The position numbers and the translations under genes are program-made. The notes beneath the pieces are model-generated. The model saw nothing but the letters and a program-made list of their open reading frames with translations. It was not told the origin of the DNA and did no database searches. A stretch of 63,200 bases of DNA, from NCBI RefSeq assembly GCF_027620315.1, contig NZ_JAPNNL010000019.1:1-63200 (forward strand). Reading direction: 5' to 3'. This document shows, in pieces, positions 34,758 to 51,943 of this stretch (its first letter is position 1; the number at the start of each line of letters is the position of its first letter). The stretch is from Nonomuraea corallina (lineage in GTDB: Bacteria; Actinomycetota; Actinomycetes; Streptosporangiales; Streptosporangiaceae).

Positions 34758-35645
34758 GTGGACTGGATCGAGCGGGTCGCCGAGATCCGGCGCTGGACCA
34801 GAGGCGGCGAGCGCGCGCCGCACAAGCCGCTCCTCCTCCTGTACGCCCTGGGCCGGTTCCAGCGTCACGGCAACCGGCCGATCCCGTTCAGCGCCGCCGA
34901 GGCCGAGCTCAAGACCCTGCTCAAGGAGTACGGCCCGCCCCGCGACACCAGCCCCGGCTACCCGTTCCACCACCTGACCAGCGACGGTCTCTGGCTGGTC
35001 GAGACCCTGCACGGCCCGGGCAGCCCCGGCCCCGAGCTGGGCCGGTTGCGCGACAGCCAGGCCACCGGCCGCCTCCACCCCGACCTGGCCCGCGCCCTGT
35101 CGGAGGAACCCGGACTGCTGGGACGGATCGCCCGCTACCTCCTCGACGCCAACTTCGCCCCGTCCCTGCACACCGACCTCTGCATGCTGGCCGGCCTGGA
35201 CCTGGAGACGGCGGAGACCAGCGGCGAGGTCAGGAAGCCGCCGCCCGTCCGCCGCGGCCCGGCGTTCCGCGACCAGGTTCTGATGGCGTACGAGTACTGC
35301 TGCGCGTTCTGCTCGTACGACGGCTGGCTGGACGGCGCGGCGGTGGGCCTCGACGCGGCGCACGTCCGCTGGTGGGCCTTCGACGGCCCGGACGACCTGG
35401 CCAACGGGCTGTGCCTGTGCGCGATCCACCACAAGCTGTTCGACAAGGGCGTCCTCGGGCTGACCCAGGAACGGACCATCACCGTCTCGGCCAGGTTCGT
35501 GGGCCGGTCCCCGGCATCCCGCGACCTGGTCCTCTCCCTGGCCGGACGCCCGGCACGGGAGCCGCAACGAGGCATGGACGCGGTCGAGCCGGACCACATC
35601 GGCTGGCACGTCCGCCAGGTCTTCCGCACACCCGCCCGCAGTTGA
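34758..35645 (+). CDS. Phosphorothioate-dependent (SBD-HNH) restriction endonuclease
   Basis: 295 aa from GTG at 34758. The N-terminal sulfur-binding domain (about residues 1-160) shows RRWTRGGERAPHKPLLLLYA, GYPFHHLTSDGLW and DANFAPSLHTDLC, as in ScoMcrA/SprMcrA-type enzymes. The C-terminal HNH nuclease has CAFCSYDG, the first His in LDAAHVRWW, Asn in DLANGLCLCAIHHKLFD and the last His there, with Cys for zinc. Such type IV enzymes cleave DNA carrying Dnd phosphorothioate marks. No dnd genes are present here, consistent with its role against modified foreign DNA. Confidence 0.85.
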   Translation: MDWIERVAEIRRWTRGGERAPHKPLLLLYALGRFQRHGNRPIPFSAAEAELKTLLKEYGPPRDTSPGYPFHHLTSDGLWLVETLHGPGSPGPELGRLRDSQATGRLHPDLARALSEEPGLLGRIARYLLDANFAPSLHTDLCMLAGLDLETAETSGEVRKPPPVRRGPAFRDQVLMAYEYCCAFCSYDGWLDGAAVGLDAAHVRWWAFDGPDDLANGLCLCAIHHKLFDKGVLGLTQERTITVSARFVGRSPASRDLVLSLAGRPAREPQRGMDAVEPDHIGWHVRQVFRTPARS

Positions 35646-35720
35646 TCGTCCGAACGAACGGTCGGCTCGACCCGTCAAATCCGGAGATGAAGCGATTCGC
35701 TGTGGCAGGTGTGTGGCTGG
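35643..35720 (+). repeat. Truncated third copy of the duplicated segment
   Basis: TGATCG.CCGAACGAAC through ATGAAGCGATTCGCTGTGGC and GTGTGGCTGG match copies A and B across the region before and just after the membrane-protein start codon, then similarity stops. It begins inside the stop codon of the restriction endonuclease. The ATG at 35688 therefore opens only a short remnant. Confidence 0.8.
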
Positions 35721-36548
35721 ATCGGAAACGATCACCATGTTGCCGTATTGGCGTGTCTGCAGGCTGATTGGACGACCTGGCCATGTTCGACGTGGGGTCC
35801 GTTGATCGTCAGATGTGGCCGAGTTACCGCTTTGGATGAATGAATCGTGGCTCTACTGAGAGCCCGGGTCCTCCGGATTACGAAGCGCGTAGTTTGATAC
35901 TACATCTATGAAATAGGTTCAGAATGTCTGATTTCTAGTACGTATCATATAATTGAGACAGATCCGATATCTGGTCATGCGGCTGACCGGATTCCTGCTT
36001 CGCCTTCGGGCCCCCTCGCGGCTGCCTTCGTTTCTAATGCCGGATGAGATGTAGCGGCTTCCAGTGTGTCGTTTCGTCAGCCTAGGGCTGGCATGCTATG
36101 GGTGCACCCTGGTCGGCGCGTGTGTATACGCGCGAGGTTCTGGATCTGCGGAACGGGTGCGCTGCTCTGATTTTCCTTGAGGTCGAGACGTGGCAGTACT
36201 TGGAGCATGAGCGCCTTCCTCGATGATGAGTGTTGAGTGGTTCGCACCCGCTGTCGGGCCCCAGGTATCCGCTGGCACTTGAACCCCCTCGCGGCGCCAG
36301 GGGATCGATGTGCCGGTCTGCAGTTGAGGCACTGATGCCACCACTCGCCGTGCGGGGCGGACGCTGTGATCTAGGCAGGTCACGCTGTCCATAGGGAGTC
36401 GACTGGACGATGTCCGAGGACCTGCGTGTTGGTGTGCGGCTGTACGTTGGTGGACCGATATTCATCCAAAGGCTGGCGCCAAAAGGAGTGAAGGTAATGT
36501 TTTGAACCTTACGTGACAGGCTGCGGCCAGTTATATAGGCTCAAAGCC
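35721..36548. other. 828-nt gap without recognisable gene
   Basis: This stretch has clearly lower GC than its surroundings, with an A/T-rich patch at 35885-35965 (TTTGATACTACATCTATGAA and TACGTATCATATAATTGAG). Short open frames exist on both strands, but their composition is not coding-like and they have no ribosome binding sites. No tRNA, known ncRNA or terminal inverted repeat was recognised. It probably represents imported or decaying DNA between two accessory modules. Confidence 0.6.
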
Positions 36549-37007
36549 ATGCCGGAATCCGATTCGTCCTACGTGCGAAGCCGTGTTTGCCGTGAGGCTG
36601 AGAAGCCCTGGCTCTGCATAGCGGACGAAAAGGTGCTCACTCAGTTCTCCCGGAATGAGAACAAGTATCTGGATGAGCCGCGATATGATCGGGAGCGCGA
36701 ATTGTCCCTTTTGACTGGGAAGCTCATGGTCGAGCAAGCGGCTCGCTACGTACTTCGTTCCGTAATTGCTAGAGATATCGAGCGTGCCAGCGTAAGGTAC
36801 ACGACGGCGGGGGAGCTACGGAAGGTGGGGTTTGCCGTCCTGCATACCCCAGGTCGCATTTCCGCAGGTTGCGACGGCGATCTGAGCCACGTCTCAGTGA
36901 TCTGGCCGGCTGATGATCCCATCCAAAGACAGGACATCCCTTGGGATCCCGACGTGACGGAAAGCTTCATCCGATGCTTCAATGGGTATGGAGACGAGCG
37001 GAGGTAG
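36549..37007 (+). CDS. Hypothetical protein, lower-GC operon gene 1
   Basis: 152 aa from ATG at 36549; no clear ribosome binding site. It is soluble and mixed alpha/beta, with CIADEKVLTQFSRNENKYLD, MVEQAARYVLRSVIARDIER and a C-terminal VSVIWPADDPIQRQDIPWDP. Codon third positions are notably less G/C-biased than in neighbouring genes, a sign of recent transfer. Its stop overlaps the ribosome binding site of the next gene. No family recognised. Confidence 0.72.
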   Translation: MPESDSSYVRSRVCREAEKPWLCIADEKVLTQFSRNENKYLDEPRYDRERELSLLTGKLMVEQAARYVLRSVIARDIERASVRYTTAGELRKVGFAVLHTPGRISAGCDGDLSHVSVIWPADDPIQRQDIPWDPDVTESFIRCFNGYGDERR

Positions 37008-37012
37008 GGGCG

Positions 37013-37507
37013 GTGAACCTAGACTATCTGATCAAGAGGGGTCTTCCTCCTTGGCGCCCGCGACCCGAAGCATCCGATCTAGACGTGTGGCATGAGTACG
37101 AGATCCCGCTAACGGGCACGTTTCATCTCAACGGAGATCTCATCCTCTTTACGCAAGTAGCTGCTGCGACCGAAGAGCGAAGCGCGTGGGCGTACGTGTG
37201 CATCGACCCAGTTGATGCTGACTCCGTAGAGAACGCCGTTTTCGCCTCGCTGGATGAGATGGACGCGTTTGTTGAAGACAGGTTCGCCGGCCGAGAGGTA
37301 GTGATCGCCCTTGCGGACAGCGACGAGCTCATCGGCCTCTGGACGAGAGAGATCATCAACTCCGGTGGCCTGCCGCAGGCGCTTGAGAGTGCGCTGAATA
37401 CGGTGATCAAGAGCGTAAACAGTGTGGATGGGCAAGAGCGTCGCATCCGGGTGAAGCTGGCAGGGGTTGAGGCGGCGAAAGCAGAACTCGACGTGCTGTC
37501 GGCTTGA
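37013..37507 (+). CDS. Hypothetical protein, lower-GC operon gene 2
   Basis: 164 aa from GTG at 37013, preceded by GGAGG, which overlaps the stop of gene 1. It opens NLDYLIKRGLPPWRPRPEAS and contains DVWHEYEIPLTGTFHLNGDL, then VVIALADSDELIGLWTREI and a helical tail. No motif is recognised, although the pattern recalls uncharacterised small proteins of actinobacterial accessory regions. A solid terminator follows, so the pair is an independent two-gene unit. Confidence 0.75.
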   Translation: MNLDYLIKRGLPPWRPRPEASDLDVWHEYEIPLTGTFHLNGDLILFTQVAAATEERSAWAYVCIDPVDADSVENAVFASLDEMDAFVEDRFAGREVVIALADSDELIGLWTREIINSGGLPQALESALNTVIKSVNSVDGQERRIRVKLAGVEAAKAELDVLSA

Positions 37508-43468: not shown

Positions 43469-43497
43469 ATAAGCGTACTTATGATAAGTGCACTTAT
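43469..43497. promoter_or_regulatory. Tandem ATAAG palindromes upstream of the PL8 lyase
   Basis: ATAAGCGTACTTAT (43469-43482) and ATAAGTGCACTTAT (43484-43497) are two 14-bp palindromic boxes with centres 15 bp apart. The second is perfectly self-complementary. They lie about 100 nt before the lyase start, in an otherwise GC-rich context. A MarR-, GntR- or TetR-type repressor would bind such sites on adjacent faces of the helix. Confidence 0.8.
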
Positions 43498-43594
43498 GAA
43501 AAATTCCTTCGCATGGATAGGAGGAGCTGGCCATAGATTTCAGGGCGGCAAGTGGGGATCATGTGAGGTGCCACCCGACCGCCTGGAGCCCGCC

Positions 43595-46096
43595 GTGCCG
43601 CACCTGTCCCGTCGCCAGGTTCTCTCCCTGATTCCCGCCGCCGGCCTGCTCGCCGCGGCGCCGCCCGCGCGCGCCGCCGCCTCGGGGGCCGACCACGCCC
43701 GGCTGATCGCCAACACCGTGGCCATGCTCGCCGGCACTCCCGACAGCAACACGCGGCCCGAGGTCGCCGCCAAGCTCGCCGCCATCCTCAGGACCGCCAG
43801 GCAGCGTCTCACCGCCATGGACCGGGCAGGTGACGGCGAGCTGTTCGCCGGCCTCACCCTCGGCGCCGACGACGCCGCACTCCGCCAGGCTTTCCAGTAC
43901 CTGTACGAGATCGCGCTCGCCACCCGCACCCCCGGCGGCGAACTCGACGGCGACGCCACCGTCCAGCGGCGCGTTGTCGAGGGACTCCAATGGCTGCACG
44001 AACGTCACTTCGGCGACCAGACGACGGGCTACTACGGCAACTGGCACACCTGGGAGATCGGCATCCCCACCCACGCCGGCCGCACCCTCGTGCTGCTCGC
44101 CGACCGCTTACGCGAGGAACACCCGGACCTGATCCCGACGTACGTCACCACCATGGACGGCTACCTGCGCAACGGCGAGAACGGCGACGTCGACCTCGAC
44201 TCCCGCTTCCACACCGGCGCCAACCTCGCCGACATCACCGCCAACCGCATCCTCCAGGGCGCCCTCACCGCCGACGACGCCCGCGTCGCCAAGGCCATCG
44301 CCGACCAGGCCACCGTCTTCGCCACCATCGACCCGTACCGGCTCAGGCACGGCGTCACCGACGGCTACTACGAGGACGGCTCGTTCATCCAGCACCACTC
44401 CGTCGCCTACACCGGCTCCTACGGGCGCATCCTGCTCACCCGCGTCGTCCAGACCCTCAAGACGCTCGACGGCGTGACCACCGGGTCGGGGCTGGGCGAG
44501 GTGGTCTACCGGTGGATCACCGACGGCTTCGCCCCGCTCATCTTCGAGGGCTGGATGATGGAGATCGTCAAGGGCCGCGCGGTCTCCCGCACCACCACCG
44601 GGTACGCCGACGTGGGGGTGATCGTGGAGGCCATCGCGGACCTGGCCGACCACGTCGGCGACGACAGGGCCCTCGCGCTGCGCAAGTACGTCAAGCACCT
44701 GCCCGCCGCCGACACCGGCGCGTTCGTCTCCCCGGTCAGCGTCGCCCGCTACGAGGAGATCCGCGCCGATCCCGCCATCCCCGCCGAAGACCTGAACCCG
44801 CCCGCGCGGTCCGTGGCCTTCAACGCCATGGACCGGGCTGTGCACCGGCGGCCCGGGTACGCGTTCGCGCTGGCCCGCAGCTCGGAGCGGATCAGCAAGT
44901 ACGAGTACATGAACGGGGAGAACCTCATGCCCTGGTTCCAGGGTGACGGGGCCTCCTACCTCTACCTGGCGGGTGAGGACCAGCGGGAGGCGTTCGGGGT
45001 CGACTACGTCACCGTCGTGTCGCCGTACCGGCTGGCGGGGGTCACCGCGCCGGTGGAGGAGCGGCGGACGGTGCCCGAGCTGTACGGGCGGTTCTGGTAC
45101 GAGAACCCGGGGCATCCGCTGGCCTTCACCTCGTCGTCGGAGTCGCAGAACACGTACGTGTACTTCCCGCGCGGGCGCAACGCGTTCTCCGGCGGGGCGA
45201 CGCTAGGGGCGTACGGGGTGGCGGGGTTCGTCCAGTCCGATGACGTGGCCTTCGCCGCCAAGCGGGAAGGGCTGCTGCCGGACGACTTCGTGACGTACCG
45301 CAACGCCCTGGCCACCAAGTCGTGGTTCATGCTGGACGACGAGATCGTGGTGCTCGTGGCGGGGGTCTCGGGGCAGGACGGGCGGGCGGCGGTGACCACG
45401 GTCGACAGCCGCATCGCCGCTCCCGGGGAGGCGGTCGCCGTGACCGGGGAGCGCTGGGACGGGCGTGCCTGGGAGCCGGGCGACACGGGCGCGCCCCGCT
45501 GGCTGCGTTACGCCAACGACACCCGCGGCACCGCCGTCGGGTACGCCTTCCTCACCCGGCAGCCGGTCACCGCGGGGGTGGAGACGGTGACCCGCAGCCG
45601 CAGAGTCGTGCGTACCGGCAATCCCGACACTCCGGTAACCAAGCACGTCTTCACCGCGTCGGTCACCCATCCCGCGGGCGGTCACGTTGCCGACCTCGCC
45701 TACGCTCTGGTGCCCGGCGCGACCGAGGCCGGGCTGCGCGGGTACACGCGCGGGACGTTGCGGGTGCTGGCCAACGACCGGCACGTCCAGGCGATCCAGC
45801 ACCAAGGGCTCGGGATCGTGGCGGCCAACGTCTTCTCGGACGGGCCGCGTCTCGCCGGTCGGATGCTGGTCGACGGGCCCGCTTCGGTCATCGTGCGGTC
45901 GGGTGAGCGTACGGTGGTCGCGCTGTCGGACCCGACGATGAAGCGGGACCGGGTCAGCGTCGTGCTGCACGGGCCGCGTCTGCGGGCCGACTCGGCGGAC
46001 GAGGGGGTGAAGGTGCGGCGGGTGCCGGGCGGGACGCTGATCCAGGCGACGACCCGCCACGCCCACGGCCGCACCTTCATCGCCACCCTGCGCTGA
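43595..46096 (+). CDS. Secreted polysaccharide lyase, family 8
   Basis: 833 aa from GTG at 43595, preferred because GGAG precedes it and the Tat signal SRRQVLSLIPAAGLLAAA starts right there; the longer frame from 43481 overlaps the operator boxes. The alpha/alpha toroid (residues 40-360) holds the catalytic Asn in YYGNWHTWEIGIP, His in FIQHHSVAYTGSYG with the catalytic Tyr, and later Arg. The C-terminal beta-sandwich region follows (EYMNGENLMPWFQGDGASYL). PL8 enzymes cleave hyaluronan, chondroitin or xanthan by beta-elimination. Exported folded through Tat. Substrate not decidable here. Confidence 0.93.
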   Translation: MPHLSRRQVLSLIPAAGLLAAAPPARAAASGADHARLIANTVAMLAGTPDSNTRPEVAAKLAAILRTARQRLTAMDRAGDGELFAGLTLGADDAALRQAFQYLYEIALATRTPGGELDGDATVQRRVVEGLQWLHERHFGDQTTGYYGNWHTWEIGIPTHAGRTLVLLADRLREEHPDLIPTYVTTMDGYLRNGENGDVDLDSRFHTGANLADITANRILQGALTADDARVAKAIADQATVFATIDPYRLRHGVTDGYYEDGSFIQHHSVAYTGSYGRILLTRVVQTLKTLDGVTTGSGLGEVVYRWITDGFAPLIFEGWMMEIVKGRAVSRTTTGYADVGVIVEAIADLADHVGDDRALALRKYVKHLPAADTGAFVSPVSVARYEEIRADPAIPAEDLNPPARSVAFNAMDRAVHRRPGYAFALARSSERISKYEYMNGENLMPWFQGDGASYLYLAGEDQREAFGVDYVTVVSPYRLAGVTAPVEERRTVPELYGRFWYENPGHPLAFTSSSESQNTYVYFPRGRNAFSGGATLGAYGVAGFVQSDDVAFAAKREGLLPDDFVTYRNALATKSWFMLDDEIVVLVAGVSGQDGRAAVTTVDSRIAAPGEAVAVTGERWDGRAWEPGDTGAPRWLRYANDTRGTAVGYAFLTRQPVTAGVETVTRSRRVVRTGNPDTPVTKHVFTASVTHPAGGHVADLAYALVPGATEAGLRGYTRGTLRVLANDRHVQAIQHQGLGIVAANVFSDGPRLAGRMLVDGPASVIVRSGERTVVALSDPTMKRDRVSVVLHGPRLRADSADEGVKVRRVPGGTLIQATTRHAHGRTFIATLR

Positions 46097-46106
46097 CCGG
46101 CCGGGA

Positions 46107-46853
46107 TCAGATGCGGAGAATCTGCCCACCGTCCAGGACGTACGTGTGCCCGCAGGCGAAATCGGTGTGCACGAGGTGCACGATGACTGTCGCGACCTCG
46201 TCGACGGTGCCCAGCCGGCCGACCGGTGTGGTGCGCACAGCCCAGTCCACGACTTCCTGTCCCGCCGCGCGGGTCATGTCGGTGTCTATGTTGCCCGGGG
46301 CGACGGCGTTGACCAGAACGCCTTGCGAGCCGAGCTCCGCCGCCATGGCGGTGGTAACGGCGTTCACCCCCGCCTTGGCCGCGGTGTAGGCGAGCACCGC
46401 GGCGCCGCCGTTGAACGAGTACGTCGAGGTCAAGTTGACGATGCGGCCCCATCCACGGTCCACCATCGAGGGCGCGAAGACGCGGATGCCGTGGATGACG
46501 GACAACAGGTTGACCTGGATCGTGCGATGGAGATCCTCGTCGCTCTGCTGGGACCAATCAGCCGGCCTGGAGATGGCTCCGGCGTTGTTGATCAGGATGT
46601 CGACCGGGCCGAGGTCTCGCTCGATCTCGACGCGCGCGGCGCGGACCTGCTCGGGGGAGGCGGCGTCGCACCGCATCGCACGGGCGGTCGCCCCGAGGTC
46701 TTTCAACTCTCGCAACGACTCTTCCGCCGCCGCGGCGTTCTCACGATAGGTGATCACCACGTCGGCGCCCTGCTGGGCGAGTAGGCGGGCCGTCGCGCGG
46801 CCGATTCCGCGCGATCCCCCGGTGACCAGGGCGGTTCTGCCAGCGAGCTTCAT
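46107..46853 (-). CDS. Classical short-chain dehydrogenase/reductase
   Basis: 248 aa from ATG at 46853. NAD(P) motif TGGSRGIG, NNAGAISRP, catalytic Ser in NLTSTYSFNGG and Tyr/Lys in YTAAKAG. Later VNAVAPGNIDTDM and HTYVLDGGQILRI are typical of the FabG-like class. It is the last gene of the minus-strand run that starts with the Trypco1 gene, 51 nt after the small cupin. Whether it belongs to that functional unit is inferred from position only. It is convergent with the PL8 lyase. Confidence 0.9.
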   Translation of the reverse strand: MKLAGRTALVTGGSRGIGRATARLLAQQGADVVITYRENAAAAEESLRELKDLGATARAMRCDAASPEQVRAARVEIERDLGPVDILINNAGAISRPADWSQQSDEDLHRTIQVNLLSVIHGIRVFAPSMVDRGWGRIVNLTSTYSFNGGAAVLAYTAAKAGVNAVTTAMAAELGSQGVLVNAVAPGNIDTDMTRAAGQEVVDWAVRTTPVGRLGTVDEVATVIVHLVHTDFACGHTYVLDGGQILRI

Positions 46854-46904
46854 TGACGTTCCTGTCGCGTACGAGGGATAGGGAGTCACGCGGCTCGGAA
46901 GATA

Positions 46905-47252
46905 TCACTCGTCGATTATCTCGTCGTCGAGATTGAAAGCCGGGCTGTAGAGGATGGCGATTCTCGCCGCCTCGCCGACCAGCTCCACCCACGTGCCAGG
47001 ATCTATCATCGCCGCGCCCAGTGGCCCGATCTCATGTTCGGTGCCGTCGGATTTGATCCGGATGTTGCCGCTGAGTACGAAATAGAGCTTGACGCTGCGC
47101 CGGTTCATGCGGCGGGAGTGCAGGCCGTTGAGATCGGCGGTCACCAGGCTGGCATGCGGGCTGTCGGACTCGGAAAAATATTGATAAATGGTCATTGAAT
47201 GATCTATTGGGGCAACTCCGGCATTTGCGCCTGAGACAATTCTAACTCCCAT
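46905..47252 (-). CDS. Small cupin-like protein
   Basis: 115 aa from ATG at 47252, overlapping the stop of the upstream cupin-like gene by 11 nt (an ATG at 47264 is possible but too close to AAAGG). The sequence VKLYFVLSGNIRIKSDGTEH, then EIGPLGAAMIDPGTWVELVG is a single beta-barrel of cupin type. Metal ligands are poorly conserved, so it may bind sugar nucleotides, as in WxcM/FdtA-like isomerases, rather than act as an oxygenase. Codon use is less G/C-biased than the rest of the window. Confidence 0.66.
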   Translation of the reverse strand: MGVRIVSGANAGVAPIDHSMTIYQYFSESDSPHASLVTADLNGLHSRRMNRRSVKLYFVLSGNIRIKSDGTEHEIGPLGAAMIDPGTWVELVGEAARIAILYSPAFNLDDEIIDE

Positions 47253-48003
47253 AGGGATTGCCATCCTTTGTCGGGTCTGGGAACCGATGACCGATCAGCG
47301 CGGTGGGTGCACTGAGCAGCGAAAATATCTTTTCTGACAGCTCGCCGACGGTGAACTGTCTCACCTTGACCATCGGCTGATCCGGAAGCGGGACTCCGCT
47401 CAGCAGATCGCAGGCCGGGCTGAGCGACGCTCCCTGGAGTATGAGAGTGGCGGTCAGCGACCGACCGTGGACGAGGATGCGATGCAGCATGGTCTCACCC
47501 AGCCAGTAGCTCGATCCAGGACCGACCGTTTCGGCGAAGACGGTCTGGACTTCGACGCTGTCCTGCCAGTCCCGGACGAAGTGCGTCCCACCGGGCGGGT
47601 GGGAATATCGATAGCGCTGCATCGGCCGGCCGCCTGGCGTGAGGGCGAAGAACTCCATCTCCAGCTCGCCTGCGAGGATGACGGACGCGAAAGTCCACCG
47701 ATGATTGTGGATGTGCTCGCTGTGCCGGTCCCGATTCGGCCACCAGATGTGCAGGCGCAGTTTGTAGCGATTGTCCGGCCCTGCTACCAGAACGATCTTG
47801 TCGAACCCGTTGTTGTGCCTATATGAGTCGGCCGCGACCCGGGCCAGGTAAGCCTCGTCCCTGAGTGCCGATTGAAGGAGCGCCGGGAGTTCACCGCTCG
47901 AAATGATATCGCGGAGCAGTTGCCGGGCCTGAATCCCCGCGTTCGGCGCCGACGCGTCGAATGATGTGTTGAGCAGGTCAATCAACTCACGCATCGTCTC
48001 CAT
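47242..48003 (-). CDS. Cupin-like metal-binding protein
   Basis: 253 aa from ATG at 48003, with GGAG 7 nt upstream. Residues 1-75 are helical; a beta-barrel follows. The likely metal site is HSEHIHNHRWTFASVILAGE with several His, plus a Glu in LEMEFF and His in HPPGGTHF. Later TMLHRILVHGRSLTATLILQ adds further His. The layout suggests an iron-dependent dioxygenase or hydroxylase of the cupin superfamily, but no named family is recognised. It is co-translated with the small cupin. Confidence 0.68.
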   Translation of the reverse strand: METMRELIDLLNTSFDASAPNAGIQARQLLRDIISSGELPALLQSALRDEAYLARVAADSYRHNNGFDKIVLVAGPDNRYKLRLHIWWPNRDRHSEHIHNHRWTFASVILAGELEMEFFALTPGGRPMQRYRYSHPPGGTHFVRDWQDSVEVQTVFAETVGPGSSYWLGETMLHRILVHGRSLTATLILQGASLSPACDLLSGVPLPDQPMVKVRQFTVGELSEKIFSLLSAPTALIGHRFPDPTKDGNPYGS

Positions 48004-48022
48004 GCGATCGCTCCATCGAGCT

Positions 48023-48805
48023 TCAGGGACCTGACGACCGTTCAGTTCTACGCGCGCAGGCGACGAGAATGCTGCCGAGTCCGGGGAAGAGCCGAGCGAG
48101 TGATCTCGACTGAAGGCGATCGCCGGATTTCTTCCGCCATACGACGAAATTGGACTCGAGATCGATTGTTTCGAAGCCCGTCGCCTCCAAGGTATCTCTC
48201 AACGAAGTTGCGGTGAAGGGCCTGATGTGGAGCCACAGATACCGGTGCAGGGGATTCACATGCCGAGGGGAGCGGCCCTCGATGAACCGAACCCGATCCT
48301 GAAGGGCCGCGAGGTTGGGAGTCGTGAGCACCACCACACCGCCCGGGGTCAGGATCCGGTGACACTCTTCCAGCAGACGGCGGGTGTCATAAATGTGCTC
48401 GATCAGCTCTCCCAGGACCACGGCACAGACCGTGGCGTCGCGGAAGGGCAGCGTGGCCGCGGCGTCCGAACAGACTCGGCGGTGCTGCTGGAGTTTGACC
48501 GGGCCTAGAGCGGCCGGATCGAAATCCACATAGACCACCCGTCGTGGCCCGAGAACGCTCAGGAGCCTGTCTCCCCCCACGATCCGTCCGCCGCCCGCAC
48601 CGAGCTCGACGACGGGTGCGCCGGCCGGGAAATCGGCCTTCTCCAAGGCCCTTCCCAGCTGTTTGCGAGCCAGCAGCACGCGCACCGCGTGATAGCGCTC
48701 GGTGAAGTAGCCGCGTACCTCCTCGCCTCCGGCGTACAACGCCAGGTTGGCGTTCCGGCCGTCGCGTACGGCACTGATCCTGAATCGCTGTTCACGCTCA
48801 TCCAT
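48023..48805 (-). CDS. Class I SAM-dependent methyltransferase
   Basis: 260 aa from ATG at 48805, overlapping the NACHT-protease stop by 8 nt. SAM motif I is VVELGAGGGRIVGG; VVYVDFDPAALG supplies the acidic ribose contact; VCAVVLGELIEHIYDTRRLL, EECHRILTPGGVVVLTTPN are motifs typical of Methyltransf_11. It has an N-terminal helical cap (residues 1-60). The acceptor is unknown. Its tight overlap with a conflict-system ATPase makes it a likely functional partner: a self-protection, signal- or metabolite-modifying enzyme (inference). Confidence 0.87.
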   Translation of the reverse strand: MDEREQRFRISAVRDGRNANLALYAGGEEVRGYFTERYHAVRVLLARKQLGRALEKADFPAGAPVVELGAGGGRIVGGDRLLSVLGPRRVVYVDFDPAALGPVKLQQHRRVCSDAAATLPFRDATVCAVVLGELIEHIYDTRRLLEECHRILTPGGVVVLTTPNLAALQDRVRFIEGRSPRHVNPLHRYLWLHIRPFTATSLRDTLEATGFETIDLESNFVVWRKKSGDRLQSRSLARLFPGLGSILVACARRTERSSGP

Positions 48806-51416
48806 CTATTGCCGTCCCGCCGTCTCCGATGAGGCTGAGGATCTCGCGGAGTTCTTCGATCTCGGGCCAGCCGGCGGACTCGGGATTGTGCTCGAACGCG
48901 TCCAGGACCATCGACAGTTCCGGCGCGCACTCCCGCATCGTGATGACATAGCGTTCCCGTGACACCGGGCGATGCCGCCACAGCTCCACCAAGGTCAGGA
49001 GGTCGAGCCGCCAGCATTCCTGGTCCGTCTCCGTGCCGACCAGGTAGGTGATCCTTCTGATGGTGCCCTCGCAGTTCTCCAGGCCCTGGTCGACCTCGGG
49101 GTGAAGGTGATCGGTGGGTTGATCGCCGAAGAACGTCAGGGTGTAACCCAGGTTGACGTCGTTCTCCGCGCTATTTCGTCCGGTGACGCGGTTGTCGCGC
49201 AGTCTGTCGACGTACTCCTCCAAGGGCCGTGCGGTTCCTCCGAACGCCAGGCCCAGGATGATCCCGCGCTGGATCCACAAGTCCGGCTCGTTCAGCAGGG
49301 CCTCCTCCAGGAACTGCACGACGCGGGCCGACCGCAGGTTGCCCAGGTAGTATGCGAGCTGCTGCCGGGCCACGCGAGCCCGCGCGTCGTCGGCCCTGTT
49401 GGCCAAGTAGGCGTCGATGCATACGTCGCACACACGCGCCAGGATCCGGCTGTTGACGTTGGCGCGGTCGAGATACTCCTTGACGAACTCCGAGACCTCG
49501 GCGGAGATGAATCTGCGGAACGCGGTCGCGGCCGCGGTCGCGTCCGTCTGCATGCATCCGAAAAGATGACGGGCCACGAAATATTCGTGGAAGGACTTGT
49601 GCGCGAACCGCACGACAGTGGGCTCGAAGAGATCGAACTGATCGCTGTCTATGGCGAGGAGCGAACGGGACACGAGGTCCTCGACTATCGCGTGCGCGTC
49701 ATCCTCCGGGGTTCGCAGGTCGACGCAGATGAAATCATGCAGCTCGCGCAGCGTGAACAAGCGTGCCCCCTGACTGCGGGCCTCCCCTTCGTCGTAGAAG
49801 TGCCAGGCGATCCGAGTCAGGAGGTCCAGCTTCTGCTCGATGCCCAAGGTGCTGCCGATCTTCGCCGACTCTATCTGGAGCAACTGCGCGACATAGGCGT
49901 GATACAGGCCCAGCGTGTCGTTGATGACGGGATTCTCCAGATCCCCTTTGAACATGAGTTCCAGTGCCATGTTGATGCGCAACGGCGTCTGGCACAGATC
50001 GCGCACCGGTCTGGACTCGATGCGCAGGCGAACCTTCCTCGTCTCCTGCTCCTGGTATTCGGGGAAGCAGTAGCTGACGTACGCGTGCACATACCGTCTG
50101 CGTTCCTGCTCCCCCCACGGCATGAGTTCGATCTGTTCGAGATCGTCGGCGAAGGGGGAGTGGGCCAGGAACCTGTTGAAATACTGGGTCCGGCAGCAGG
50201 AAAGGGCCGCGTACCCGAAGATGAACTTGTTCAGTTCGTTCAGCATGCGCGGGTAGGCCAGCCGAGAGAGATGTTCATCGAGGGAGTCGAGGATCAGGAC
50301 GGGTCGTAACGGAATTCCGTCACGATCTTCCACTCCGACCCAGGAGATCGGTTCGCACCCGAGAGCCGAACGATCCAAATAGCGTGCCAGCCATTCCGCC
50401 GATCCGAAGTCTTCGTCGATGGCGTGCGTCGCGACAGCTCGCAGGTCGATGCGCACCGGGAAGGTGTCCTTCCGGACTCCGGCGGACCACGTCCGCAGCA
50501 GCTCCGAATATAGGCAGTAGGTCAGCGTGGTCTTCCCGATGCCGGGGTCGGAGAGCAGGAGCACCCGACGTGGTGATGGGGTGTCGTCCGTCACCTGCTC
50601 ACGGACTCTTCCGACGAGCTCGGTGACGAGCCCTCCGCGTTCCGCGTCTCGACCACTCACCCGCCATGGGGCCGGCACGAGAAGCTCTGAGCGGGTGAGC
50701 AGGTCACCGACTGTTATCCGCGACGATCCGGGCACGCCACGAGCGAGAAGCCTCCGCTGTTCCCGGAGTTTCCTCTCCCAGACCGCCTCCAAAGCGGGTG
50801 TGGAGTGGAACGAGAGTGCTCTCGACTCTGGAGTGATCCCGGCGGGTCCCAGGGCATCCGACTGGGGCACCAGCCCGGGAAACTCCGACAAGACCGTCCG
50901 GACGGGAATGGCTCTGCCGCCGAGGTCGCTGTTCCGGTCTCTGGTCGCCACGAGGATGCCGCACACGGCGCCGGTGCGGATGTTGAGCACGCCCGCGCCG
51001 CTCATCCCTGGCCTCACCTGGCCATCCTTGAGCTTCAGCAGGGGCCGGTCGGCCCGCGTCAAGCCTTCGTACGAGGCGGTGAGAGAGTCTCCCTCACCGT
51101 AGATATCTGTATAGCCGTAGGCATACGTACGATCACCCAGCTCGACTTCATGGTGCAGCTCGATGACCGGATGATTGCGCAATCCGATACCGAGCAGAGC
51201 GAGATCGGGATACGGCTGGTCGCGGATACTGACAATTCGAGCAGGATACTCCTTATGCTGCCAGACGACAGTTATCTCGGCTTCGGGGGAAAGGCATCCC
51301 TCCAGTACGTGAGCGCACGTCAGGACGAGTCCGGTGCCCACGAAGAGGCCCGTTCCGAACTGCTGCGCTCCGGGCACGACTTTGACGGTGGCGACCCGTA
51401 GTTGTGCGTCATCCAT
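48798..51416 (-). CDS. Trypsin-like protease fused to NACHT NTPase (STAND)
   Basis: 872 aa from ATG at 51416, overlapping the Trypco1 stop by 8 nt. The N-terminal trypsin-like domain (1-180) has the triad H36 in LTCAH, D71 in YPDLALLG and S139 in RPGMSGAG. The NACHT module has Walker A SDPGIGKTTL (289-298), Walker B VLILDSLDEH (373-382) and a CCRTQYF sensor region. A helical C-terminal array of about 400 residues (SFHEYFVARHLF onward) would sense the trigger. The architecture fits a STAND switch whose ATP-driven assembly activates a protease. No signal peptide: cytoplasmic. Confidence 0.92.
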   Translation of the reverse strand: MDDAQLRVATVKVVPGAQQFGTGLFVGTGLVLTCAHVLEGCLSPEAEITVVWQHKEYPARIVSIRDQPYPDLALLGIGLRNHPVIELHHEVELGDRTYAYGYTDIYGEGDSLTASYEGLTRADRPLLKLKDGQVRPGMSGAGVLNIRTGAVCGILVATRDRNSDLGGRAIPVRTVLSEFPGLVPQSDALGPAGITPESRALSFHSTPALEAVWERKLREQRRLLARGVPGSSRITVGDLLTRSELLVPAPWRVSGRDAERGGLVTELVGRVREQVTDDTPSPRRVLLLSDPGIGKTTLTYCLYSELLRTWSAGVRKDTFPVRIDLRAVATHAIDEDFGSAEWLARYLDRSALGCEPISWVGVEDRDGIPLRPVLILDSLDEHLSRLAYPRMLNELNKFIFGYAALSCCRTQYFNRFLAHSPFADDLEQIELMPWGEQERRRYVHAYVSYCFPEYQEQETRKVRLRIESRPVRDLCQTPLRINMALELMFKGDLENPVINDTLGLYHAYVAQLLQIESAKIGSTLGIEQKLDLLTRIAWHFYDEGEARSQGARLFTLRELHDFICVDLRTPEDDAHAIVEDLVSRSLLAIDSDQFDLFEPTVVRFAHKSFHEYFVARHLFGCMQTDATAAATAFRRFISAEVSEFVKEYLDRANVNSRILARVCDVCIDAYLANRADDARARVARQQLAYYLGNLRSARVVQFLEEALLNEPDLWIQRGIILGLAFGGTARPLEEYVDRLRDNRVTGRNSAENDVNLGYTLTFFGDQPTDHLHPEVDQGLENCEGTIRRITYLVGTETDQECWRLDLLTLVELWRHRPVSRERYVITMRECAPELSMVLDAFEHNPESAGWPEIEELREILSLIGDGGTAIDG

Positions 51417-51801
51417 CGTGATCGAGCTGCGATCGCCCGCCGTTGGGGTCAGGCGTCGCGGCGGGTAGCGCGATCTCGGGCGTACCGGCCGCGGTGGGAT
51501 GTTCGGCACGGCGCCATTCGAACGTGACCTTGAGATTGGCCTTTCCTGTGCCCTTCGCCAGGATGGCGGTGAGCCCACCCGACTCGACGCCTATCTCGAA
51601 CCCCAGTTCCACCGTCGCCACATCGGGGGCGGCGGCTCTGATGGCGTCGCCCACTTCTTCGGTGATCGCGGAGATTTTCCCGACGACATCACCGAAATTG
51701 AACAATCGGCTGGCCACCAATTCCTCGCCCATGGACATTTCGACATGGACGACGCTGCCATCACGCAAAGCCACGGGTACGGCATGAGATCTGTCGTGCA
51801 C
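51409..51801 (-). CDS. Trypsin-co-occurring domain 1 (Trypco1) protein
   Basis: 130 aa from GTG at 51801 with a GGGAGGAAAA ribosome binding site. The CU044_2847/Trypco1 pattern is visible: VPVALRDGSVVHVEM, then VVGKISAITEEVGDAIRAAA, VATVELGFEIGVESGGLTAI and KANLKVTFEWRR. These small proteins are linked to trypsin-like proteases in predicted conflict systems and may be their substrate, regulator or sensor. A proline-rich C-terminal tail (PTAAGTPEIALPAATPDPNG) could be a cleavage linker (inference). First gene of the operon. Confidence 0.86.
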   Translation of the reverse strand: MHDRSHAVPVALRDGSVVHVEMSMGEELVASRLFNFGDVVGKISAITEEVGDAIRAAAPDVATVELGFEIGVESGGLTAILAKGTGKANLKVTFEWRRAEHPTAAGTPEIALPAATPDPNGGRSQLDHDG

Positions 51802-51905: not shown

Positions 51906-51943
51906 CACGACAAGGAATCATTACCTGTCGTGATACCGGTCAA
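51906..51943 (-). promoter_or_regulatory. Inverted repeat and -35 upstream of the Trypco1 operon
   Basis: CACGACA (51906-51912) and TGTCGTG (51926-51932) are perfect 7-bp arms with a 13-nt A/T-rich spacer. On the minus strand a TTGACC -35 (51938-51943) precedes it, with the -10 expected inside the repeat. A dimeric repressor would block the promoter of the whole conflict operon, about 110-140 nt upstream of its start. The -10 itself is not convincing. Confidence 0.5.

What the first reader, a model, noticed from the sequence alone, without database searches (positions are those of the whole stretch)
46107..51801. Trypsin-NACHT/Trypco1 conflict operon with a methyltransferase, two cupins and an SDR
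Six minus-strand genes, five of them touching or within 20 nt: Trypco1, a protease-NACHT STAND protein with an intact triad (H36, D71, S139) and Walker A/B, a SAM methyltransferase, two cupin-like proteins, and an SDR 51 nt further on. Trypsin plus NACHT plus Trypco is a predicted class of NTP-dependent biological conflict systems. The enzymatic tail is not one I recognise from it. It could make or modify a small molecule that triggers, or protects against, the protease. An inverted repeat sits over the probable promoter.
Basis: partly seen in the sequence, partly recalled or inferred. Interest (0 to 1): 0.9.

Follow-up and report, generated by a model that had tools for sequence, protein, structure and literature searches.

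The report
Protease-NTPase switch beside nucleoside-type enzymes
A soil bacterium carries a rare, transferable gene set that joins an immune-type protease switch to enzymes, one of which most resembles a known nucleoside-editing enzyme, hinting that some bacterial alarm systems may act through small-molecule chemistry, although no function has been tested.

Summary
The six genes are real: Trypco1 (PF19493), a trypsin-NACHT protein with intact triad and Walker motifs, a SAM methyltransferase, two cupin-fold proteins and an SDR, on one strand at 63-64% GC (flanks 70-73%). The set is rare but not confined to close relatives. A Bacteroidota MAG carries cup1, Trypco1, trypsin-NACHT and the same-clade SDR in one run. 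A Streptomyces has MTase-cup1-cup2-SDR behind a NACHT whose protease is replaced by an HTH. Two further actinobacteria have cup1, cup2 and SDR beside a different AAA_16-TPR NTPase. So the switch is exchangeable, cup1+SDR recur in all four, and the exact four-gene tail is not constant.

Best reading: a STAND-gated module whose enzymes make or alter a nucleoside-type molecule, probably in biological conflict. Substrate, product and defence are untested; a small biosynthetic operon with a STAND regulator is the main rival. The searches of the held papers found no description of the combination. New variant of a known kind; interest 0.62.

The parts
51409..51801 (-). Trypco1 (trypsin-co-occurring domain 1), 130 aa, first gene
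   Evidence: PF19493 1.6e-15, 57.9 bits; NF041216
48798..51416 (-). Trypsin-like protease fused to a NACHT/STAND NTPase with weak C-terminal HEAT-like repeats, 872 aa
   Evidence: PF13365 1.5e-14; H36/D71/S139, K295, LDSLDE; P-loop G294/K295 and LDSLDE invariant in 8 of 8 aligned rows
48023..48805 (-). SAM-dependent methyltransferase, 260 aa
   Evidence: PF13489 3.4e-15; only weak PDB relatives, two MitM sequences at about 5e-4
47242..48003 (-). cup1: thiol-dioxygenase-fold cupin with HxH...H (H99, H101, H174), 253 aa
46905..47264 (-). cup2: Pac13-like cupin, 119 aa
46107..46853 (-). Short-chain dehydrogenase/reductase (FabG-like), 248 aa; an upstream GTG at 46889 is also possible
   Evidence: PF00106 2.7e-56; clade with the other four operon SDRs, support 0.972
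51906..51932 (.). Near-palindrome with 13-nt arms, about 105 nt upstream of Trypco1, overlapping a promoter-like match; possible operator
   Evidence: promoter-like match 51913-51886 on - strand, 1 found against 0.8 expected; single site in genome; 12 of 300 simulated sequences as good

Best explanation
This is a horizontally spread module in which a STAND-type NTPase switch controls enzymes that make or alter a nucleoside-type small molecule, most likely in biological conflict. Proposed working: the NACHT part senses a cue and assembles on ATP; assembly brings the N-terminal trypsin domains, partnered by Trypco1, into action; the protease cleaves a partner, possibly one of the tail enzymes or an inhibitor. 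The SDR oxidises a sugar hydroxyl, the Pac13-like cupin eliminates water from the activated sugar, and the cup1 oxygenase and (where present) the methyltransferase finish the product. The product acts as a toxic or signalling nucleoside. Shown: gene content, motifs, predicted folds of the two cupins, recurrence with exchangeable switches. Inferred: substrate class (from Pac13 similarity), order of reactions, protease target, horizontal spread (rarity, GC and phylum jump), biological role.
Against: The tail is not constant: MTase in 1 of 4 and cup2 in 3 of 4 related genomes. Pac13's Y89 is not kept (L95), K16 lies outside the aligned stretch, and H42/H49 is off by one in the profile alignments. 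Single-sequence similarity of cup2 to Pac13 is not significant (0.35). No nuclease, pore or other classic effector was found among the six genes or the nearest flanking genes scanned. None of the six proteins matches a PADLOC model over its whole length. The L002 switch has an HTH, which fits transcriptional regulation. The low GC is not peculiar to the operon: 30-40 kb of the window is 61-69% too. Nothing was found on viral contigs with the cup2 or NACHT alignments.
Confidence: 0.42

Rival explanations
1. A small specialised-metabolite operon with a STAND-family regulator: the enzymes make a secreted or storage metabolite, and the NTPase (with HTH or TPR in other members, trypsin here) tunes its production. 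No immunity is involved.
For: cup2's best and the MTase's best PDB relatives are Pac13 and MitM, from antibiotic pathways (Pac13: PMC5656905; MitM: recalled); the L003 and L014 NTPases partly match, far below cut-off, the TOMM kinase/cyclase model, and L003 the AfsR model; L002 carries HTH_31; cup1 relatives sit in pathway-like neighbourhoods elsewhere, such as L016 and a Vibrio plasmid.
Against: Trypsin plus Trypco1 is described in predicted conflict systems (PMC7159879, passages); none of the six proteins is a transporter or a scaffold-building enzyme by Pfam; the L003 and L014 NTPases matched no DNA-binding domain.
Confidence: 0.27
2. A plain trypsin-NACHT death switch: the protease is the effector or activates one elsewhere, and the enzymes are hitchhikers or metabolic neighbours.
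For: The N-terminal protease domain weakly resembles Avs1b, LmuA and RT-protease models; MTase and cup2 are not always present.
Against: SDR and cup1 stay with the NTPase across two phyla and three switch types, with a specific SDR clade; genes are packed with overlaps in the window and L022.
Confidence: 0.17
3. The tail is protective: it makes or repairs something that keeps the protease quiet, or detoxifies a product of attack, so the protease fires when the metabolite falls.
Against: No result here separates it from the main reading; L014's SDR is on the opposite strand from its NTPase.
Confidence: 0.1

Closest known systems
Trypco1/trypsin modules of the VMAP ternary conflict systems (PMC7159879)
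   Same: Trypsin-like peptidase with a Trypco1 gene next door in an NTPase-linked predicted conflict system (passages)
   Different: VMAP systems pair with MoxR and vWA proteins; here the trypsin is fused to a NACHT-type NTPase and none of the six proteins matches MoxR, vWA or VMAP families. The main text of that paper has no occurrence of cupin or methyltransferase
AVAST type 1 (Avs1b) and other fused trypsin proteases (PMC12799240)
   Same: N-terminal trypsin on a STAND-type NTPase; protease thought to fire on oligomerisation (passages)
   Different: The Avs1b model is about 1,900 positions long and only residues 1-102 here match it; those systems pair with an MBL pro-nuclease upstream, and none of the six genes here is one
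Pac13, nucleoside dehydratase of pacidamycin (PMC5656905)
   Different: About 20% identity; Y89 not kept; cup2 sits with an SDR and a STAND NTPase, not in an antibiotic pathway
Cysteine dioxygenase/thiol dioxygenase family
Prokaryotic viperins (recalled; search listing only)
   Same: An immune-linked enzyme acting on nucleotides; Pac13's product is also 3'-deoxy-3',4'-didehydro at the ribose
   Different: Viperin is a radical-SAM enzyme (recalled); no radical-SAM family was matched among the six proteins

Membership tests
Trypco1/trypsin conflict module | Trypco1 domain next to a trypsin-like peptidase | tested here: met
   PF19493 and PF13365 both above cut-off in adjacent genes; also in L022
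VMAP ternary system | VMAP-C, MoxR and vWA components | tested here: not met
   No such Pfam family among the six proteins at E<=0.1
STAND/NACHT NTPase | Walker A, acidic Walker B and NACHT-type helical region | tested here: inconclusive
   G294, K295 and LDSLDE invariant in 8 of 8 rows; a source names the Nonomuraea purpurea relative NACHT domain-containing; but Pfam gives only sub-threshold NTPase hits
AVAST type 1 | Avs1b-like full-length protein with upstream MBL nuclease | tested here: not met
   Avs1b model matched over 105 of 1,924 positions only; no MBL family among the six proteins
Pac13-like nucleoside cupin | Closest solved fold is Pac13 | tested here: met
Pac13-like nucleoside cupin | Catalytic H42, E108 and the Y55/Y89 pair | tested here: inconclusive
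   E108 and Y55 matched, Y89 lost, H42 matched but shifted by one
Pac13-like nucleoside cupin | Dehydration of uridine-5'-aldehyde | not testable with these tools
   needs enzyme assay
Thiol dioxygenase | Cupin fold with a 3-His iron site | tested here: inconclusive
   Fold and HxH...H conserved 7 of 7; residue-level overlay not available
Anti-phage defence system | Protection against phage | not testable with these tools
   no assay; no PADLOC match over a whole protein among those scanned

The most novel reading that the evidence does not exclude
A STAND-gated, protease-controlled immune module that makes a viperin-like antiviral nucleotide (a 3'-deoxy-3',4'-didehydro or otherwise sugar-modified species) by an oxidation-plus-elimination route, SDR then Pac13-like cupin, instead of radical SAM chemistry, with interchangeable sensor switches across phyla.
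Probability: 0.1. Interest if true: 0.93.

Novelty: new variant of a known kind. Interest (0 to 1): 0.62.

Why it matters
Known STAND and trypsin conflict systems are thought to end in proteases, nucleases, pores or nucleotide-signal enzymes (recalled; in part passages). A recurring pairing with a Pac13-type cupin and a specific SDR would add small-molecule nucleoside chemistry as an output or control of such switches, and gives a directly testable enzyme (cup2) with a solved relative and a known substrate type.

Tried and rejected
Plasmid records: trypsin-NACHT matched 4 records, none covering 80% of it; cup1 matched 4, none covering 80%; cup2 and a strict SDR search (E<=1e-60) matched none. 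IMG/VR contigs: cup1 gave one contig, phage-like by my reading of its ORFs, with no match to the other window proteins in the half that was fetched; cup2 and NACHT gave none. More copies of the protease-NACHT: 1 of 345 genomes of the order, the window's own, at E<=1e-30, and 0 of 392 Streptomyces genomes at E<=1e-40 (the tool warns that an empty answer shows nothing by itself). cup2: 2 of 297 genomes of the family at E<=1e-8, the window's own and one that is evidently the genome of L003 (same 7,726-base contig). cup1: 13 of 394 genomes of the class, the window's own included, mostly in other contexts. A literature lead on cysteine-derived sulfonamides made by a cupin oxygenase (PMC9113183, passages) gave no closer link.

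Rejected: that the exact four-gene tail is a fixed unit; that cup1 is simply inherited with the operon (its tree puts L014 with Actinomadura cup1 at 0.991 and L022 elsewhere, with weak deeper support); a RiPP operon (little room between genes for a precursor, small ORFs not searched for; daptide-MTase match only 13.8 bits against a cut-off of 175); membership in VMAP or AVAST.

Rows dropped: A1 used 17 of 18 cup1 hits (P0017 left out); A2 used 7 of 49 NACHT hits plus L022; A5 left out P0074, a short form of the window's own cup2. The cup1 tree (95 sequences) left out P0003, P0010, P0011, P0016-P0018 and one of 84 loci (envelope of 120 residues or less, or no hit). The SDR tree (33) used only SDRs in held loci at E<=1e-15 and over 150 residues; 30 of the 91 matches were held as loci. 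The tool kept 80 of 106 cup1 loci, found by two short peptide patterns. Gene calls in fetched loci come from a simple script, so small genes may be missed; one search used a P-loop pattern that misses NACHT-type loops and was replaced.

Full report
What is there. Six minus-strand ORFs fill 51801-46107. Trypco1 and the trypsin domain both pass Pfam cut-offs. The protease-NACHT protein has H36, D71, S139, GIGKTT and LDSLDE. In an eight-row alignment the P-loop glycine and lysine and LDSLDE are invariant; the trypsin triad is readable in the six rows that have the whole domain (P0019, P0021, P0022, P0024, P0025, L022), is cut off in P0020 and is replaced in P0023. The stretch is 63-64% GC against about 70-73% on either side, but 30-40 kb of the same window is 61-69% as well, so acquisition is suggested, not shown. 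The nearest protein relatives are from Nonomuraea purpurea (cup1 82%, NACHT 86%), so the host is probably a Nonomuraea or close kin (inference).

Does it recur? cup1, the most distinctive tail gene, was sought in the genome-contig collection (84,980 species by the tool's description) through two peptide patterns: 106 loci, 80 kept. Homologues of the other window proteins were then sought in every fetched locus. Four loci stand out. L022 (Saprospiraceae MAG, Bacteroidota): cup1, Trypco1, trypsin-NACHT (32% identical), SDR (50%), all plus strand, cup1 and Trypco1 overlapping by 4 nt. L002 (Streptomyces sp. NBS 14/10): NACHT (64%) with an HTH_31 in place of trypsin, MTase (69%), cup1 (53%), cup2 (55%), SDR (74%) in order. 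L003 (Thermomonosporaceae MAG): SDR (cut by the contig end), a 913-aa AAA_16-TPR NTPase, cup1, cup2, one strand. L014 (Streptomyces sp. PR69): a 951-aa AAA_16-TPR NTPase, cup1, SDR on the other strand, cup2.

Is that more than chance? SDRs are common, so three checks were made. Of the 80 loci only these four have a P-loop protein of 600 aa or more on the cup1 strand within 1 kb; 15 such proteins on either strand lie within 5 kb in the whole set. The SDR in these four is the best match in its genome to the window SDR, with clear gaps to the runner-up, out of 7, 54, 12 and 18 SDR matches in the L022, L002, L014 and L003 genomes. The five operon SDRs form one clade (0.972) of 33. cup1 does not follow: the window, P0002, P0004, L002 and L003 form a clade (0.952), but L014 groups with Actinomadura cup1 genes (0.991) and L022 lies elsewhere, with weak deeper nodes. 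This suggests that cup1-type proteins were recruited to this setting more than once, which argues for a functional need. Further copies are inferred from equal contig lengths only: NPDC007905 has NACHT, cup1 and cup2 on a 33,290-base contig; NBC_01410 has trypsin-NACHT and cup2 on an 8,339,859-base contig; N. purpurea has NACHT and cup1 on a 157,992-base contig. Adjacency there was not seen.

How it may work. Trypsin domains fused to AVAST and other defence proteins are activated on infection and cleave a partner pro-nuclease (PMC12799240, passages). By analogy the NACHT part here would be the switch and the trypsin the relay. Since the trypsin and Trypco1 are exchanged for HTH or AAA_16-TPR forms while cup1 and SDR stay, the constant business end is the enzyme set. 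I therefore favour a small-molecule output. SDR plus Pac13-like cupin suggests oxidation then elimination on a ribose. Whether the output harms a phage, the cell or a competitor, or is a signal, is open. The rival of a small biosynthetic operon with a STAND regulator keeps about a quarter of the weight; it is helped by sub-cut-off TOMM kinase/cyclase matches in L003 and L014 and an AfsR match in L003.

Novelty. Searches for Trypco with NACHT, trypsin and biological conflict, CU044_2847 (no paper), Trypco1 (two papers), cupin with NACHT, defense, trypsin and STAND NTPase, AVAST with trypsin-like, and STAND, NACHT, nucleoside, cupin, conflict system and dioxygenase (top 10 of 179 listed) showed no paper describing this combination; the two Trypco papers were seen as passages only. 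Only open-licence PMC papers are held. The protein classes are known; the combination and the Pac13 link are new as far as these searches go.

Noticed in passing
L103:711-7659: A 2,038-aa TIR, NA-iREase3 and WD40 protein lies 4 nt from a distant cup1-like gene on the same strand; cup1-like proteins may join other STAND-type systems too.
   Followed up: partly
L007:6714-8088, L017:9384-10669, L106:7902-9213: cup1 relatives directly adjoin thymidylate-kinase-like genes in a Henriciella MAG, an unclassified bacterial MAG and a Vibrio nigripulchritudo plasmid.
   Followed up: partly
L005, L020 and most of L023-L081: A cup1 subfamily, mostly Streptomyces, sits near one membrane-protein family (60 loci) and often a NUDIX-like gene (51 loci; NUDIX is my reading of the sequence); function unknown.
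   Followed up: no
window 34758-37507: HNH endonuclease gene with PADLOC HNH and type IV restriction matches, followed by 57-59% GC ORFs without Pfam match; possible defence remnant 9-11 kb from the operon.
   Followed up: partly
window 43470-46096: Polysaccharide lyase family 8 gene that ends 10 nt from the SDR stop, with an AT-rich near-palindrome (TAAGCGTACTTATGATAAGTGCACTTA) over its listed start.
   Followed up: no
P0020 (Nonomuraea purpurea): Annotated NACHT relative starts inside the protease domain, so its catalytic His and Asp are missing; wrong start or decayed protease.
   Followed up: no
P0071, P0079 (Nonomuraea sp. NPDC046802): One strain has two cup2 genes on contigs of different length, so possibly two such operons.
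   Followed up: no
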